DNA from: a virus
Length of the DNA stretch: 24,904 nucleotides
Virus record (IMG/VR): IMGVR_UViG_3300047319_000364
Location: 1 to 24,904 of that record
Strand: one strand, 5' to 3'
Under the pieces are notes generated by a model. The model was not told the DNA's origin, did not search any database, and saw only the letters and a list, made by a program, of their open reading frames with translations. This document shows positions 659-21,656 of this stretch, piece after piece. The translations under genes and the position numbers were made by a program. Each line of letters begins with the position of its first letter. The stretch's first letter is position 1.

Positions 659-886
659 ATGAACATAGCCTGCAGCCTGAAGAACGCGTTATTATTACGC
701 TCCGCAACGATTTTCCGCGCACGCCGGCATGACGCTGCGGAAAAAAATTTGTACGTGACGGATACCGTAGTAGCTAGCGTTTGCAAGGTCAACGACCTTT
801 TTCTCGCTTTCTCTGCTGGCGCGTGCGCAATGGCTCTCGCCGTGATGATCGTATTGACTTTCTCCCGGAGCCTGCAATGCAACTGA
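659..886 (+). CDS. Small predicted membrane protein with an internal operator-like element (75 aa)
   Basis: ATG 659 is preceded by GGAAG at 645-649 and lies about 55 bp after operator site A. The first 25 residues are basic. An in-frame segment E-K-N-L-x-x-T-D-T-V follows, encoded by an A7T3G run and a GATAC half-site element (741-777). Then comes one hydrophobic stretch of about 19 residues (around 48-66) and a short tail, which suggests a single-pass inner-membrane protein. The same leader plan (operator, ATG, basic segment, EKNL..TDTV, hydrophobic segment) recurs in the lipoprotein gene at 18241. The end overlaps the next start at 877. Function unknown. Confidence 0.55.
   Translation: MNIACSLKNALLLRSATIFRARRHDAAEKNLYVTDTVVASVCKVNDLFLAFSAGACAMALAVMIVLTFSRSLQCN
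741..777 (+). promoter_or_regulatory. Intragenic operator-like element, site F (degenerate)
   Basis: A run AAAAAAATTT (741-750), a 10-nt spacer and GATACCGT (761-768) match the elements at 3311 and 18302 in sequence and spacing. The second arm is degenerate (GCTAG instead of GTATC). The element lies inside the gene that starts at 659, 173 bp after site A. It may be a secondary operator or a decayed copy of a repeat. Confidence 0.45.
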
Positions 887-3141: not shown

Positions 3142-3322
3142 AGTGCGCCGCAAGCCGAACGGCAAGACCATCTTTCGGCTGTTCAGCTACTGGACCGGAA
3201 AGCGCTGGTCGTACACGGCGCAGACGCCACACGGCGCCGAGTCCTGCAAGCACAAGCCGAGCAGTGAAGCTGAGCGCGAAGGCGGCTTCGAATGGCGCGG
3301 GCTGCGACGCAAAAAAATTTGA
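3080..3322 (+). CDS. Small basic hypothetical protein (80 aa)
   Basis: ATG 3080 has a strong AAGGAGAG site at 3068-3075. The protein is basic, rich in aromatic residues and predicted beta-rich (V-W-F, F-R-L-F-S-Y-W, R-W-S-Y-T), ending in R-R-K-K-I. Its stop codon is formed by the A7T3GA run that begins the operator element at 3311, so the end of the gene and the start of the next promoter are fused. It overlaps the preceding HNH gene by 62 bases. No family recognised; the composition would suit nucleic-acid binding, but that is inference. Confidence 0.7.
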   Translation: MQEFTVWFDKSTKPIHIGVYEVRRKPNGKTIFRLFSYWTGKRWSYTAQTPHGAESCKHKPSSEAEREGGFEWRGLRRKKI

Positions 3323-3349
3323 CCGCTAAAGATACCGTCATGGTATCGT
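3311..3349 (+). promoter_or_regulatory. Promoter/operator element, site B
   Basis: AAAAAAATTT at 3311-3320 is followed after 10 nt by the 17-bp dyad GATAC-CGTCATG-GTATC (3331-3347). A TTGACC hexamer (3319-3324) overlaps the T-run, and TATCGT (3344-3349) is a candidate -10 at a long 19-bp spacing. An extra GATACCG half-site follows at 3362. The element lies between the gene ending at 3322 and the Gp157-like gene at 3398 and probably drives the operon from 3398 onward. Confidence 0.65.
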
Positions 3350-11716: not shown

Positions 11717-11944
11717 ATGGAAGAACTTTGGACGCACAAGGAACTGGCGAAGTTTTTAGGCTACAGCCCGGCATCAGTGCAAACGATGGTTACGAAGAAG
11801 CCGGCAAGCCTGCCGCCGCGTGTCGCCGGTCTTGGCCGGCCGCGTTGGGTTCCGTCAGTGGTGCGGGATTGGGTGATAGCGCAGAGTACGCAGCCCGCAC
11901 CAGCGCAGCGTGGGCGCCCGCGCAGGACGCCCACCGTTGTCTAG
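11717..11944 (+). CDS. AlpA/excisionase-like helix-turn-helix protein
   Basis: The 75-aa product opens W-T-H-K-E-L-A-K-F-L-G-Y-S-P-A-S-V-Q-T-M-V (residues 5-25), a MerR-like helix-turn-helix as in AlpA and Xis proteins, then a wing and R-P-R-W-V-P-S-V-V-R-D-W-V, the usual end of that domain, plus a basic tail. ATG 11717 is preferred because GGGAGAGG lies just upstream; ATG 11705 is an alternative. It faces the integrase gene, and their stop codons share the palindrome CTAG (11941-11944). By position and fold it is the likely recombination directionality factor. A transcription factor role is also possible. Confidence 0.75.
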   Translation: MEELWTHKELAKFLGYSPASVQTMVTKKPASLPPRVAGLGRPRWVPSVVRDWVIAQSTQPAPAQRGRPRRTPTVV

Positions 11945-12951
11945 CCGAGCTTGGCGGCGATGTCCGTCGCCTTCGGCTCATAGTAGATTTGCAGCATCTT
12001 GAGGGTCTTGTGCCCTGTCACCGCAGACAGTTCTAAAACGTTCGGCAGCAACTTGGACATGCGCGTCGCAGCTTCGCGGCGCGAGTCGTGGAAATGCAGG
12101 TCGGTCAATCCGGCCTTTTTTTTCGCCTCACGGAACAGAGTGTCAAATGATCCGGCATTCACTGGCACCAGAAAATCATCTGGCCGGCCCTTCGCAAGCA
12201 GCGAAAGCAGATCAACGGCACGCGTCGACAGAGGAACGTTGCGCGCGTCGTCGTTCTTCGTCTGCGGCAGATGGATATAGCGCTCGGCGATGTTGACGTC
12301 GCGATGCCGAATGTTCAGGATCTCGCCGCGGCGCATTGCCGTTTCGACGGCAAAGACGAATGACCAGGCGATCAGATGCTTCGATATTTCCGGCGTGGCC
12401 TTCATGTCCCAACCGAGCGCATTGCACATCGTCTGGATTTCTGTGTTATCGACGCGGCGCTTGCGAGGGCGCGCGCTCTTTGGCCGGCGGATCAGATGCA
12501 CCGGGTTTTCCTTGAGCGGCATGCGCCATTCCTTGATTGCAGTCGTGAACACGGCCGAAATCAAGTTGAGTTCGCGATTGACGGACGAAGCGGAAACGAC
12601 GCGCAATCGGTCATCGCGCCAATCAGCCACATCTTGCGGAGAGAACCGGGAAAGCGGCTTCTGGAAGACCTGAAAATTACGGGCAAGCATTTCAAGCCGC
12701 ATAACCTCCCACCGCTCGCCCCGCTTCGTCGGGCTAACCTCAAGGGCATAGCGAGTCAAAAGCTTTGAGACTGTCGGCAGGGTCACGGTGTTGTCGTCGA
12801 CAACCTGACCGCCCTCATTCAGCTTTGCCTCAGTAGCGGTCGCCCATGCCACCGCCTCGGGCTTGGTGTTGAATGATGCGCTCACAGGCTTGTGCCCCGC
12901 CTTGCGCACGATTGCGCGCCAGCTCTCGCCGCGCTTCTGGTATGTGGCCAC
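11941..12951 (-). CDS. int: Tyrosine-family phage integrase
   Basis: With the GTG start at 12951 the protein is 336 aa, opening M-A-T-Y-Q-K-R-G-E-S-W-R-A like many phage integrases, with GGAACCGGAA just upstream. The frame is open to GTG 12993, but that part lies in a DNA repeat. The N-terminal 60 residues form the arm-site binding domain, about 70-160 the core-binding SAM-like domain, and the rest the catalytic domain with A-M-R-R-G-E (R207), T-K-N-D-D (K232), H-D-S-R-R (H288, R291), T-G-H-K (H314) and I-Y-Y (Y323 or Y324). It integrates and excises the phage at attP/attB. Operators G and H and candidate arm sites lie upstream. Confidence 0.95.
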   Translation of the reverse strand: MATYQKRGESWRAIVRKAGHKPVSASFNTKPEAVAWATATEAKLNEGGQVVDDNTVTLPTVSKLLTRYALEVSPTKRGERWEVMRLEMLARNFQVFQKPLSRFSPQDVADWRDDRLRVVSASSVNRELNLISAVFTTAIKEWRMPLKENPVHLIRRPKSARPRKRRVDNTEIQTMCNALGWDMKATPEISKHLIAWSFVFAVETAMRRGEILNIRHRDVNIAERYIHLPQTKNDDARNVPLSTRAVDLLSLLAKGRPDDFLVPVNAGSFDTLFREAKKKAGLTDLHFHDSRREAATRMSKLLPNVLELSAVTGHKTLKMLQIYYEPKATDIAAKLG

Positions 12952-12985
12952 GTTTTCCGGTTCCTTTTTGTTTGGCGACGGCACC

Positions 12986-13009
12986 TGGTACACATCTGGT
13001 ACAGTCGCA
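12986..13009 (+). repeat. Direct repeat with tandem TGGTACA units, copy 1
   Basis: Two TGGTACA units spaced 11 bp apart, the second followed by GTCGCA. The 24-bp block matches 13147-13170 at 21 of 24 positions, 161 bp away. One-helical-turn spacing suggests cooperative binding, perhaps of the integrase arm-binding domain or the excisionase-like protein. Confidence 0.6.
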
Positions 13010-13027: not shown

Positions 13028-13044
13028 GATACCATGATAGTATC
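13028..13044 (-). promoter_or_regulatory. Palindromic operator, site G, upstream of int
   Basis: A full GATAC-CATGATA-GTATC dyad lies 77 bp upstream of the chosen int start. On the minus strand a TATCAT hexamer overlaps its end, 17 bp downstream of a poor -35 (GTGCTT), in the same geometry as sites A, C and D. It probably controls int. Confidence 0.6.
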
Positions 13045-13068: not shown

Positions 13069-13098
13069 TTGACGGTCAACGGATACCGGATAAGTGTC
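13069..13098 (+). promoter_or_regulatory. Operator-like site H with one mismatch
   Basis: TTGACG (13069-13074) is followed by GATAC-CGGATAA-GTGTC (13082-13098), a copy of the 17-bp dyad with one base changed in the right arm. It lies 54 bp from site G (start to start), so the two may act together in the int control region. Confidence 0.45.
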
Positions 13099-18170: not shown

Positions 18171-18199
18171 TTGCGTTTGCGATACCGTATTAGTATCCT
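18171..18199 (+). promoter_or_regulatory. Promoter with palindromic operator, site D, before the cargo gene
   Basis: TTGCGT (18171-18176) and TATCCT (18194-18199) are 17 bp apart around the dyad GATAC-CGTATTA-GTATC (18181-18197). Additional half-sites lie at 18156 (GATAC) and 18202 (GTATC). It should drive the lipoprotein gene at 18241, placing the cargo under the same control as early operons. Confidence 0.72.
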
Positions 18200-18240
18200 T
18201 CGTATCGTCATAACAACGAACGCAGAACGGAGTAAACGAC

Positions 18241-19206
18241 ATGAAACACTGGACCCTTGCGGTACGACGCGGCACATCGAGCGATGCAATCCCGCGCGTC
18301 GAAAAAAATTTGATCGGCACGGATACTGTCACGGTATCCGTAGCGTGCGCGTTCATGGTGTGCGCCGTGCTGATGTTGTCAGCCTGCGGAGGTGCCGATG
18401 CGCCGGCGAAGGGCGCCGCGGTTAAGCAGGTCGCGCCTGCTCTCGCGGTGCCCGCATCATCGGCATCCGCCCCTGACCCGGCATCGTCGCCTAGCCTGGC
18501 TGATTCGGCTGCGTCGGCGCCTTCCGCCGCATCTACTCCCGCGCCTGCGTCGGCTCCTGCGGCTCAGGTGCCAGCGTCAACGCCGGTCGTCAAGATCGAA
18601 GTCTATGGCGACGACCAGATGGCGGGATTCGCCCTGAATCAGTACGGCTTCCCGTCCGTCGTATCGCCCAATGAGCCGGCCGCCCTTCAATCGCTGCTGC
18701 AACAGCGGTTCAACGATACGGGCATCACCGTAACGAACCGCGCGACCGGCGGCACATCGAGCAGCCTCTACAACGAGTTGCGCGGCATGGATGGCAACGG
18801 AGATCCGTTCGCGGACCGTATCAAGTTATCTGCAGCAAGCATCGTGATCGAGAGCCACACGATCAACGATGCGCTCGGCGGCGAAACCGTGGCTGATTAC
18901 CGGCAATACCTGGCTGATTGGGTCGTTGCAGTGAGAGCAGCCGGCAAGACGCCAGTGCTCGAAGAATCCGGTCCTGTCTGCGACTCGGACCATCCTCAGC
19001 TTGCCGCATACGGGCAAGCGATGGACGACGCGGCAGTCGCCTACGACGTGCCGATCATCAAGCAGTACTCGTACATCCAAGGAATTGCAGGTTGGCAGTC
19101 GCACATGACTGGGTGTTTGTACCCGGATGCGACGCTGCTCGCTGCGAAAGCTCAACAAGAACTGGGAGTCATTGCGCCGCTCGTGAAATCTGCGCTCGGA
19201 GAATAG
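18241..19206 (+). CDS. SGNH-hydrolase-like lipoprotein with altered nucleophile motif
   Basis: The 321-aa frame starts at ATG 18241 with an ACGGAG site. An unusual 33-residue leader (ending E-K-N-L-I-G-T-D-T-V) precedes the hydrophobic segment and L-S-A-C lipobox (C49); ATG 18355 (M39) would give a normal lipoprotein signal. A Ser/Ala/Pro linker runs to about residue 115. The SGNH-like domain follows with V-Y-G-D-D-Q-M-A-G (124-125), N-R-A-T-G-G-T, S-H-T-I-N-D-A and S-H-M-T-G-C-L-Y-P-D. The block I serine is replaced by Asp125. Relatives hydrolyse or transfer acyl groups on surface glycans; with the acyltransferase next door it may modify the host surface. Confidence 0.7.
   Translation: MKHWTLAVRRGTSSDAIPRVEKNLIGTDTVTVSVACAFMVCAVLMLSACGGADAPAKGAAVKQVAPALAVPASSASAPDPASSPSLADSAASAPSAASTPAPASAPAAQVPASTPVVKIEVYGDDQMAGFALNQYGFPSVVSPNEPAALQSLLQQRFNDTGITVTNRATGGTSSSLYNELRGMDGNGDPFADRIKLSAASIVIESHTINDALGGETVADYRQYLADWVVAVRAAGKTPVLEESGPVCDSDHPQLAAYGQAMDDAAVAYDVPIIKQYSYIQGIAGWQSHMTGCLYPDATLLAAKAQQELGVIAPLVKSALGE
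18302..18340 (+). promoter_or_regulatory. Intragenic operator/promoter-like element, site E
   Basis: AAAAAAATTT (18302-18311), a 10-nt spacer and the dyad GATAC-TGTCACG-GTATC (18322-18338) match sites B and F. TTGATC (18310-18315) and TATCCG (18335-18340) could serve as hexamers at 19 bp spacing. It ends 15 bp before the internal ATG 18355. The dyad codes for T-D-T-V-T-V-S on both strands. Confidence 0.6.
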
Positions 19207-19316
19207 AAGTGCGCGCGCCTCGACGAACTGTCCAAGACGGCCGCCCCACGTGTCTACAGTAACCGCCAGGATATACTTGTGGCCTTACAGATAATTACAA
19301 AGAATCTGAGGGACGC

Positions 19317-20252
19317 GTGAAAAAGCTAAGTTCAATCCACTTCCTGCGCATGGTCGCAGCGCTGGGAGTGGTAATACATCACGTCATCACATCTTCTGGC
19401 TCGGCCTTTATGCTCGGCGCCGCTGGTGTCGACGTGTTTTTTGTAATCAGTGGCGTTGTTATATCGCTAGCTCTCGAACGTGAATCGGCGCGCGAATTCG
19501 GCATGAAGCGCGCGATTCGAGTGCTTCCGCTTTACTGGATAGCCACGGTTATTTTCGCAGTGTTCCGATTCCATGCATATCAGATTGAGCCAACTTTCTC
19601 AGATTGGGTCCGGTCTTTCCTTCTGATACCGCGCACCGGATGGGCGCCGATCTATTACGCGGGATGGACGCTCTGCTACGAGGCGCTGTTTTATGTTGTC
19701 GCAACGACGTCGATTGCACTTTTCGGACCGATGGCTCGTAATGCGTGCATTGCGCTAGTTATGGCTATTGCTGCAGCCTTCAATCTGCCGTTGCTTCTGG
19801 AGTTTGGTGCTGGCATGCTCATCGGGCAATTGGTCATGCAGGGCCGAGTGCCCGACATCCGCCAAGGGCTTTTCTGCGTCACCATAGCTATCGGACTATT
19901 CCTGCATCACACTGGTGCCGTTGGTGATGAGCGCATGATCGTATGGGGCATTCCCGCTGCGCTCCTAGTCTATGGGATGCTGGCGTTTGACAGATCCAAG
20001 CTATTCCGCAGCAACACCGTTCAGATAGGCGGCGATGCTAGTTATGCTCTGTACCTTTTTCATCTGCCAATCGTTGAAGGAATAGGAATCATCATGCCGC
20101 ACGGAATTGCCACCGATGCCCTGCAAGTTGTGGCTGCTGTCGGCGTCGCTATCGTCGTGCGAGTTGCTATTGAGCGCCCAATGTTGCGGTGTATGAGTGC
20201 CGCGCTGATCCAGCGGAAACTTTCGGCAAAGCTTCCGCCAGAGCCAGCTTAA
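19317..20252 (+). CDS. Acyltransferase 3 family membrane protein (O-acetyltransferase-like)
   Basis: The 311-aa protein begins H-F-L-R-M-V-A-A-L-G-V-V-I-H-H (H21/H22) and continues G-V-D-V-F-F-V-I-S-G-V-V-I-S, the signature opening of acyltransferase-3 enzymes such as OafA and phage Oac. About ten hydrophobic helices follow, with Y-A-G-W-T-L-C-Y-E-A-L-F-Y in the middle and S-Y-A-L-Y-L-F-H-L-P near the end. It would transfer an acyl group to surface polysaccharide, a classic serotype-converting cargo that can block superinfection. The GTG start has GAGGGA upstream. Codon use is more AT-rich than in neighbouring genes, suggesting separate acquisition. Its stop is 3 bp from that of the opposing beta-helix gene. 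Confidence 0.88.
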   Translation: MKKLSSIHFLRMVAALGVVIHHVITSSGSAFMLGAAGVDVFFVISGVVISLALERESAREFGMKRAIRVLPLYWIATVIFAVFRFHAYQIEPTFSDWVRSFLLIPRTGWAPIYYAGWTLCYEALFYVVATTSIALFGPMARNACIALVMAIAAAFNLPLLLEFGAGMLIGQLVMQGRVPDIRQGLFCVTIAIGLFLHHTGAVGDERMIVWGIPAALLVYGMLAFDRSKLFRSNTVQIGGDASYALYLFHLPIVEGIGIIMPHGIATDALQVVAAVGVAIVVRVAIERPMLRCMSAALIQRKLSAKLPPEPA

Positions 20253-20255
20253 ACA

Positions 20256-21656
20256 CTAAGGCGTCACAAGGTAGGACACCGAATACGTAGTATTTGGCTG
20301 TGACGCTGACGGTGCGTTGATCGCATAGATCGTGAACCCCGTCTCCGTCAGAACCGTGGAGACAGGTTGAAGTTTCCACGTCAGCCCGTTGTTCGAAGTA
20401 AGCATCACCGACTTCGGCGGAACGGCAAGCGGCGTCGGAAACGTGACGCTGACAAGCGAACCTCCGGCAGGACTGGTGCCCGTGCCGAAGGTTATGATGC
20501 CGCTGATCGTGCTCCCAGAGATTTGCGGAGATGGAGGCGAAGTACCAGCGTTCGCGCCGGCCGTAACTGTAGGCGCAGGTGTTCCATGCTGCGTTACAAG
20601 CGGGGCTGTCAGGTTCTGAATGTAATACGACACGGCTGATGCCGGGCCAGACACAGCATAAGGTGTCAACGTGGCGCCGGCTGTGCTCACGCGATAGCCG
20701 TTAATGCGCAAGTTGTACGCAAAGTTGATCTGGATGCCGGTTGTCGAGCTTCCAGGGTTCCCTCCGACTACCGTCAGCCCGTCGAACTGCTCCTCGTGAA
20801 TGTCATTGTCTTGCGTTGTAGGATTCAAGCCATCGTTAAACTTGACGCCTATAAATGAGCCCGTGGAGATGTTAGAAAACACCTCAGCCTCATAAAAATA
20901 GTTCGTATCGCTGTTTGAGATCAGATCGATGCCTGTCGCGGTCACGTTGAAGAAGTGTAGCCCTACGAACGCGTTGTCTGTCGAGCCAGTTTCAGAGGCA
21001 GGACCGGCTAGCCCCAAGCCTTGCCACACGTTGAGCGCGTGCAGATTCTTGAATACGTTGACTGACGTATTGAATGCATGGCTTCCGGTAGCGGTCTGGT
21101 AGTAGGCGAACGGCCCCGACGCACCGGCTACCACACCTGCAATGTTGTTCACAGTGAGATCGTCGAACGAGCTCTGCCGCACCGTATCCCACATGATGCC
21201 GTACAAGTTGTTCGAACCACTCCCATCGACAGTCAACCCCTTGACGTTCATCCCAACCACTTGGGGGAACGTTGTCGCAGCAGGATTCCCTATCTTTACG
21301 ATGGGTGTGCAGCACACTCCGGGTGCAGACGCCCCCCATTTGAATGTCGCGCCATATGCATACACCGTTGCTGGAGACGTAATTGCCACTGTCCCCGCCA
21401 CCTTATATGTTCCAGGCGGAACGACCAGTACGCCACCCCCCGGAATGTTCTGCGCCGCAGTGATCGCGCTATTTAGGCAGGCAGTAGCATCGGTCGCGCC
21501 AGTGTTATCGCATGACGTTTGAATCGCGGAAGAGCCAATGAGGACCGGGCCGAGCGCAGACAATCCTCCGCTATCGCTCAAGCCGCTGACAGTCGTTTGC
21601 CCTAATGCGAGCGAAGAAGCTGCCATAAGACACAGAAGAAATTTGGATATTTTCAC
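20256..21656 (-). CDS. Pectate-lyase-like beta-helix protein with Sec signal peptide
   Basis: The 466-aa protein starts at GTG 21656 (ACGGAAG upstream). Residues 1-19 look like a Sec signal (M-K-I-S-K, a hydrophobic core, A-L-G then Q). Residues about 48-110 match the opening of pectate-lyase-3-type beta-helices (D-A-T-A-C-L-N-S-A-I...G-G-G-V-L-V-V-P-P-G-T-Y-K-V), followed by repeated short strands with V-x-G-L-T-V and N-x-Y patterns to about 330, then a C-terminal strand-rich domain. Such proteins are tailspikes that bind or cut host polysaccharide. It follows the fibre gene directly. A signal peptide is unexpected for a virion part, so it might be a secreted depolymerase instead. Confidence 0.75.
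   Translation of the reverse strand: MKISKFLLCLMAASSLALGQTTVSGLSDSGGLSALGPVLIGSSAIQTSCDNTGATDATACLNSAITAAQNIPGGGVLVVPPGTYKVAGTVAITSPATVYAYGATFKWGASAPGVCCTPIVKIGNPAATTFPQVVGMNVKGLTVDGSGSNNLYGIMWDTVRQSSFDDLTVNNIAGVVAGASGPFAYYQTATGSHAFNTSVNVFKNLHALNVWQGLGLAGPASETGSTDNAFVGLHFFNVTATGIDLISNSDTNYFYEAEVFSNISTGSFIGVKFNDGLNPTTQDNDIHEEQFDGLTVVGGNPGSSTTGIQINFAYNLRINGYRVSTAGATLTPYAVSGPASAVSYYIQNLTAPLVTQHGTPAPTVTAGANAGTSPPSPQISGSTISGIITFGTGTSPAGGSLVSVTFPTPLAVPPKSVMLTSNNGLTWKLQPVSTVLTETGFTIYAINAPSASQPNTTYSVSYLVTP

What the first reader, a model, noticed from the sequence alone, without database searches (positions are those of the whole stretch)
18241..20252. Cargo module: SGNH-like lipoprotein and acyltransferase under a phage operator
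Two plus-strand genes sit between leftward tail and lysis operons, and the acyltransferase is visibly more AT-rich. Together they suggest surface O-acyl modification, i.e. lysogenic conversion. Yet the promoter carries site D, so a lysogenic repressor would silence it. Either the regulator activates, or the cargo acts during infection.
Basis: partly seen in the sequence, partly recalled or inferred. Interest (0 to 1): 0.6.

Follow-up and report, generated by a model that had tools for sequence, protein, structure and literature searches.

The report
Phage surface module with dead esterase
Next to its tail-fibre genes this soil-bacterium phage carries a surface lipoprotein, built like an esterase but without the usual catalytic residues, and a sugar-acylating enzyme that relatives swap for other surface-modifying genes; the pair probably changes the cell surface during infection so that the phage and its kin no longer bind there.

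Summary
The two plus-strand genes are real, at 18241-19206 and 19317-20252, between leftward lysis and tail genes. A palindromic phage operator (GATACNGTNNNNGTATC) overlaps the putative promoter at 18181-18197.

The first gene encodes an SGNH-fold outer-membrane-type lipoprotein, but the catalytic triad is gone: GDS became GDD, and block V Asp and His became Gly and Tyr. The change marks a clade of about 25 distinct Burkholderiales phage or prophage proteins under purifying selection, so 'SGNH hydrolase' does not fit. The second gene is a standalone AT3 acyltransferase with its key motifs intact. In relatives its slot holds other AT3s, intact SGNH esterases, methyltransferases, a glycosyltransferase, a dioxygenase or barrel-like secreted proteins, between the lipoprotein and the tail fibres.

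Against one close relative, lipoprotein C-terminus, AT3, spike and tail-fibre end share about 99.9% identity over roughly 3.4 kb, while flanks differ by about 5%: they moved as one block. Best reading: a receptor-alteration (superinfection-exclusion or serotype-conversion) module, in this clade wired to the phage-wide lytic operator, so likely acting during infection. Activity, expression timing and regulator binding are inferred.

The parts
18171..18199 (+). putative promoter: -35 TTGCGT (18171-18176), 17-bp spacer, -10 TATCCT (18194-18199)
   Evidence: read from sequence; the same TTGCG-N17-TATC geometry recurs at sites 588 and 7847 and in relatives; below a 9/12 sigma-70 threshold, so inferred
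18181..18197 (+). operator copy 1, GATACCGTATTAGTATC, over spacer and -10
   Evidence: 6 sites in window vs 0.06 expected; PWM 25 bits; present in all relatives of this clade with sequence there (one base changed in the L010-L013 type)
18229..18232 (+). Shine-Dalgarno GGAG, 8 bases before the ATG at 18241
   Evidence: read from sequence
18241..19206 (+). lipoprotein gene: lipobox LSAC-G (Cys49, codon 18385-18387), Ala/Pro/Ser-rich linker, SGNH-fold domain (about residues 115-321) with the catalytic triad lost (GDS to GDD at D125; block V Asp/His to G291/Y294)
18302..18338 (+). A-tract plus operator copy 2 (18322-18338, GATACTGTCACGGTATC) inside the signal-peptide coding region; the same A-tract plus operator arrangement occurs at 3311-3347
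   Evidence: operator codons unchanged at synonymous positions in 8 aligned relatives while neighbouring codons vary
19317..20252 (+). standalone AT3 acyltransferase (311 aa, GTG start), R-x10-H and RxxR motifs present
   Evidence: PF01757 E 9e-25; phrog_3333 O-acetyltransferase E 1e-42 and phrog_6705 O-antigen acetylase E 7e-12; motifs
20256..21656 (-). pectate-lyase-like spike gene, exchanged together with the AT3 gene
   Evidence: PF12708 E 1.5e-5 (below cut-off), phrog_7458 tail spike E 0.0012; 100% identical in L003
19101..22500 (.). exchanged block: lipoprotein C-terminus, AT3, spike, tail-protein C-terminal end
   Evidence: 99.5-100% identity per 200 bp to contig G001; the joined alignment over 17.2-23.7 kb averages 95%

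Best explanation
The pair is the cargo half of a receptor-binding and receptor-altering module of temperate Burkholderiales phages. Gene 1 encodes an outer-membrane-type lipoprotein with an SGNH fold that can no longer use the Ser-His-Asp mechanism. The most likely job is to bind, not cut: to occupy or mask the surface glycan or receptor seen by the phage's own tail fibre, as T5 Llp does with FhuA (inferred). Gene 2 encodes a standalone AT3 acyltransferase that should O-acylate a surface polysaccharide, as Sf6 Oac does (inferred from family and intact motifs). The two are probably co-transcribed (inferred: no clear promoter or terminator between them). In this clade the promoter carries a phage-wide operator plus a second operator 141 bp downstream inside the gene. 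The module should therefore be shut in the lysogen with the other early rightward genes, and open in infection or induction, giving superinfection exclusion and protection of progeny from cell debris (inferred). Shown: gene structure, triad loss, purifying selection, operator sites, swapping of cargo at the same place, joint exchange with the spike gene.
For: Triad loss in all 23 distinct aligned family members, while the Magia homologue and three cargo SGNHs keep GDS and a block V His; two more GDD members in bacterial genomes. GDD proteins fall on one side of a branch (91/83). dN/dS 0.07-0.25 in the domain in seven pairs; invariant D124, D125, H206, N209, D210, E241, E242, C247, D248, W285, H288. 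SGNH fold: model pLDDT 82, best match 1yzf Z 19.6, rmsd 2.5, 181 aligned. Constant place between lysis genes and tail fibres with variable cargo; the sequenced phage Magia has the same order. Joint exchange of AT3 and spike. Operator sites recur before early genes and the internal site is frozen at synonymous positions. Diverged relatives have a TTGACA promoter with a palindrome in the spacer before the same gene, essentially one such site per genome in the four large contigs scanned. Precedents: Sf6 Oac immunity (PMC9558356), T5 Llp beside its receptor-binding gene (PMC9586334).
Against: No expression, binding or surface-chemistry data. No sequence match of the lipoprotein to Llp or Cor families was found. 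Lysogenic expression is not excluded: the AT3 could have a weak promoter of its own, and the regulator could activate. In the diverged relatives the module seems to have its own local regulator, so the timing inferred here may hold only for this clade. Host and full genome of the window phage are unknown (24.9-kb fragment). Most relatives are metagenomic contigs, several nearly identical.
Confidence: 0.5

Rival explanations
1. One reading: the SGNH lipoprotein and the AT3 protein work together as a split AT3-SGNH acyltransferase (OafA/OafB-like) on surface polysaccharide.
For: Adjacent genes, AT3 motifs intact; standalone AT3 and soluble SGNH partners can cooperate (WecH with PatB, PMC9558356).
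Against: Triad replaced at all three positions; mutation of the same residues in OafA abolishes or strongly reduces activity (PMC7448272). The lipoprotein keeps its place when the cargo is a methyltransferase, glycosyltransferase, dioxygenase or a second, intact SGNH protein, and in some loci the AT3 gene is on the other strand (L036; Magia).
Confidence: 0.1
2. Classic lysogenic conversion: the AT3 gene (and perhaps the lipoprotein) is expressed in the lysogen and changes the serotype, as for Sf6 or SfII Oac genes.
For: AT3 next to a tail-spike gene is the Sf6-like pattern (from general knowledge); Oac acetylation gives Sf6 superinfection immunity (PMC9558356); in relatives the module has its own promoter and, in ten loci, a nested HTH gene, typical of a self-regulated moron.
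Against: In this clade two strong phage-wide operators control the module and there is no clear AT3 promoter of its own.
Confidence: 0.25
3. The SGNH domain is still an enzyme, with a rebuilt site (Asp125 in place of Ser, new invariant His206 three residues before block III Asn, invariant His288).
For: D124, D125, H206, N209, D210, E241, E242, H288 invariant in 23 members; strong purifying selection. Asp nucleophiles replace Ser in some alpha/beta hydrolases (general knowledge).
Against: No SGNH enzyme with this set is known to me; coordinates of the model could not be measured, so clustering of these residues is unproven.
Confidence: 0.15

Closest known systems
Burkholderia phage Magia (MT701587): CPT_Magia_029 'outer membrane-associated lipid esterase', CPT_Magia_028 'membrane-associated acyltransferase'
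   Same: Same order: lysis genes, plus-strand SGNH lipoprotein, acyltransferase, tail fibre
   Different: Magia protein keeps GDS and the block V Asp/His; its acyltransferase is on the opposite strand; about 33% identical; not studied experimentally as far as found
Sf6 Oac (OacA), phage O-antigen O-acetylase of Shigella flexneri (PMC9558356)
   Same: Standalone AT3 protein of a temperate phage; R-x10-H and RxxR motifs; beside a tail spike
   Different: Substrate unknown here; gene sits behind a triad-less SGNH lipoprotein under a phage operator
OafA/OafB AT3-SGNH acyltransferases (PMC7448272)
   Same: AT3 and SGNH folds, surface glycan target presumed
   Different: Separate proteins, SGNH lipidated and without triad; not a functional pair by sequence
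T5 Llp, superinfection-exclusion lipoprotein beside the receptor-binding protein gene (PMC9586334)
   Same: Phage lipoprotein encoded next to receptor-binding genes
   Different: Much larger, SGNH fold, no detected sequence relation; receptor probably a glycan, unknown
Scattered-operator repressor systems (phage P1 C1, mycobacteriophage L5; general knowledge)
   Same: One operator repeated before many phage transcription units
   Different: Different operator; regulator not identified with certainty (candidate HTH gene in contig G012, phrog_5736 E 1.6e-10)

Membership tests
SGNH/GDSL hydrolases | SGNH fold | tested here: met
   pLDDT 82 model, 1yzf Z 19.6, rmsd 2.5, 181 aligned residues
SGNH/GDSL hydrolases | block I nucleophile Ser (GDS) | tested here: not met
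   GDD in 23 of 23 distinct aligned members and in L065, L066
SGNH/GDSL hydrolases | block III Asn (GxND) | tested here: met
   N209-D210 invariant, though the block III Gly is replaced (HTIND)
SGNH/GDSL hydrolases | block V Asp and His (DxxH) | tested here: not met
   Asp to Gly/Ser/Asn/Gln/Ala; His to Tyr/Val/Ala/Ile, kept only in L046
AT3 acyltransferases | PF01757 domain, R/K-x10-H in TM1, RxxR in first cytoplasmic loop | tested here: met
   E 9e-25; R11-x10-H22 and R65-A-I-R68; motifs as named in PMC9558356
AT3-SGNH (OafA/OafB) acyltransferase as a split pair | SGNH partner with Ser-His-Asp triad | tested here: not met
Sf6 Oac-type serotype conversion | acylation of host O-antigen and block to superinfection | not testable with these tools
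   needs surface chemistry and adsorption assays
Llp/Cor superinfection-exclusion lipoproteins | sequence relation to Cor or Llp | tested here: inconclusive
   PHROGs gives only phrog_8011 (unknown function) for this protein
Phage repressor regulon (scattered operators) | repeated operator before several transcription units | tested here: met
   6 sites in window against 0.06 expected; 5-10 strong sites in the other long contigs
Phage repressor regulon (scattered operators) | a phage repressor binds these sites | not testable with these tools
   candidate HTH gene only

The most novel reading that the evidence does not exclude
A conserved phage-borne SGNH subfamily in which the catalytic Ser is replaced by Asp and a new invariant His stands before block III, either a rebuilt enzyme or a glycan-binding lectin-like lipoprotein. 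It is the fixed partner of a swappable set of surface-modifying enzymes that moves together with the tail-fibre tip. In diverged relatives its gene carries a whole regulator gene nested in another reading frame.
Probability: 0.3. Interest if true: 0.72.

Novelty: new variant of a known kind. Interest (0 to 1): 0.55.

Why it matters
Phage surface modification is usually described gene by gene. Here one locus pairs a constant, triad-less lipoprotein with interchangeable surface-modifying enzymes and the tail fibre. If the lipoprotein binds the same receptor as the fibre, it would be a general superinfection-exclusion factor for Burkholderiales phages. It would also show how seroconversion genes and receptor-binding genes are exchanged as a unit. 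The catalytic rewriting of an SGNH domain under strong purifying selection is a clear biochemical question, testable with one purified protein.

Tried and rejected
Split OafA-like pair: rejected because the SGNH triad is absent and the lipoprotein keeps other cargo. Start of gene 1 at the downstream ATG near 18355 instead of 18241: less likely, because the RBS at 18229 and an open, same-length leader with the same spacing are conserved in relatives, although two leader types are unalignable. Programmed frameshift at AAAAAAATTTG: considered and dropped, since the ORF needs no shift. AT3 promoter in the 110-bp gap: nothing at 9/12. Solved-structure search by sequence: no hit for the lipoprotein profile and only a chance hit for AT3. 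AT3 relatives in viral contigs: only the G001 copy. Phage records by near DNA match: one 41-bp hit only. Direct-repeat search in relatives gave no shared operator. Papers on phage SGNH pseudoenzymes: none found. Operator half-sites near the candidate repressor gene in G012 and G009 (16681, 17691 and equivalents, 9.8-11 bits) are close to the noise level (null about 3 hits of 6 bits or more per 50 kb). They are not used as proof.

Full report
Observation. The window is a 24.9-kb phage fragment from IMG/VR, with relatives in metagenomic phage contigs and in Paraburkholderia, Ralstonia and other Burkholderiales genomes. Left of them lie minus-strand lysis genes, right of them minus-strand tail genes. 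The acyltransferase gene is AT-richer (53.8% GC against 58.7% for the window), but so is the neighbouring spike gene (55.5%).

The operator. GATACNGTNNNNGTATC-type sites occur six times in the window where shuffles give 0.06, and repeatedly in relatives' contigs. One class combines the operator with TTGCG-N17-TATC, a promoter-like element. Site 18181-18197 before the lipoprotein gene is of that class. A second site, 18322-18338, lies in the coding sequence, 141 bp downstream in every relative of this clade with sequence there. Its codons do not vary at synonymous positions among eight aligned relatives while adjacent codons do; the only change falls in the operator's unspecified centre. It is therefore kept as DNA. 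Sites recur before early genes such as the Sak4-like (1214) and Gam-like (3398) genes. The simplest reading is repression of early rightward transcription. A candidate HTH regulator lies in contig G012 (phrog_5736 E 1.6e-10), but its binding is not shown.

The lipoprotein. It has a lipobox (LSAC-G), a Pro/Ala/Ser linker and an SGNH domain. The model made from 19 relatives (pLDDT 82) matches SGNH hydrolases (1yzf Z 19.6, rmsd 2.5, 181 residues). The catalytic residues are gone: GDS is GDD, and in block V the Asp and His are Gly and Tyr. All 23 distinct aligned members have GDD; L065 and L066 add two more. The Magia homologue and three SGNH proteins found as cargo keep GDS and the block V His. 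The GDD proteins group on one side of a branch (91/83), and the domain is under purifying selection (dN/dS 0.07-0.25). Invariant residues include D125, H206, N209, D210 and H288. In OafA the triad is required for activity (PMC7448272). So the fold is met, the hydrolase definition is not, and the protein keeps a conserved function of another kind.

The acyltransferase. PF01757, with R-x10-H and RxxR intact, the motifs named as essential in the AT3 review (PMC9558356). Standalone AT3 proteins such as Sf6 Oac act without an SGNH partner, and Sf6 Oac gives immunity to superinfection (PMC9558356).

The module. In relatives the lipoprotein stays between lysis and tail genes, but the next gene changes: AT3 proteins (L015, L034, L036, L044, L045; L065 by inspection), intact SGNH esterases (L004, L006, L037), methyltransferases (L007; weakly L046), PhyH dioxygenase (L033), GT2 glycosyltransferase (L038; L066 resembles one by sequence) and secreted barrel-like proteins (L015 weakly PF13505; L007, L013, L014, L035 and L045 by inspection only). 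Phage Magia has the same order. Between the window and contig G001, 19101-22500 is 99.5-100% identical per 200 bp while the joined alignment averages 95%. This block holds the lipoprotein's C-terminus, the AT3 gene, the spike gene and the tail protein's C-terminal end. Cargo and receptor-binding parts were therefore exchanged together.

Regulation in relatives. In nine diverged loci examined in detail (L032, L033, L035, L037, L038, L039, L043, L044, L046) a small gene of phrog_20491 (four members tested; weak XRE-type HTH hits) lies in another frame inside the 5' end of the lipoprotein ORF. The lipoprotein frame is open through it in all nine; synonymous-codon shuffles give 1-22% for each, but the loci are homologous and not independent. 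Upstream stands a TTGAC promoter-like element with a palindrome in the spacer. Within four large contigs that palindrome occurs once, apart from one two-mismatch site in G020. L037 and L043 share a palindrome and near-identical HTH recognition residues; so do L033, L038 and L066. This fits local autoregulation there. In the window's clade the nested gene is absent and the phage-wide operator takes its place.

Mechanism. Most likely, during infection or induction the operator is released, the lipoprotein goes to the outer membrane and binds or masks the glycan receptor, and the AT3 enzyme acylates surface polysaccharide. Both would stop superinfection and loss of progeny on debris, as known for T5 Llp (PMC9586334) and, for immunity, Sf6 Oac. 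Binding, acylation target and timing are inferred. Conversion in the lysogen is the main rival.

Limits. The window is a fragment; its own repressor region is absent. Several relatives are near-copies. The promoter is below a strict sigma-70 threshold. Co-transcription rests on the absence of a clear signal in the gap.

Noticed in passing
L032, L033, L035, L037, L038, L039, L043, L044, L046 and L066, 5' end of the lipoprotein ORF: An HTH-type gene (phrog_20491) is nested in another frame inside the long 5' part of the lipoprotein ORF; the lipoprotein frame stays open through it in the nine loci tested, and HTH residues and promoter palindrome appear to covary.
   Followed up: partly
window 741-777 and 3311-3347: The A-tract AAAAAAATTTG followed at fixed distance by an operator (complete at 3331, only half near 762) as at 18302-18338; at 741 it lies in ORF 659-886.
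   Followed up: partly
window 13028-13044 and 13082-13098: A strong and a weak operator upstream of the integrase gene (11941-12993, minus strand), conserved in relatives.
   Followed up: no
window 19066-19203 and the same part in L004, L007, L014: The last 45 or so residues of the lipoprotein come as two alleles (GIAGWQSHMTGCLYPDATL and ALPDWQSHMASCLVPDAYL types) that reassort among relatives, near the former active site.
   Followed up: partly
L006 5209-6936: Cargo protein joining an intact SGNH domain to a GH43/GH130-like domain, as a lipoprotein.
   Followed up: no
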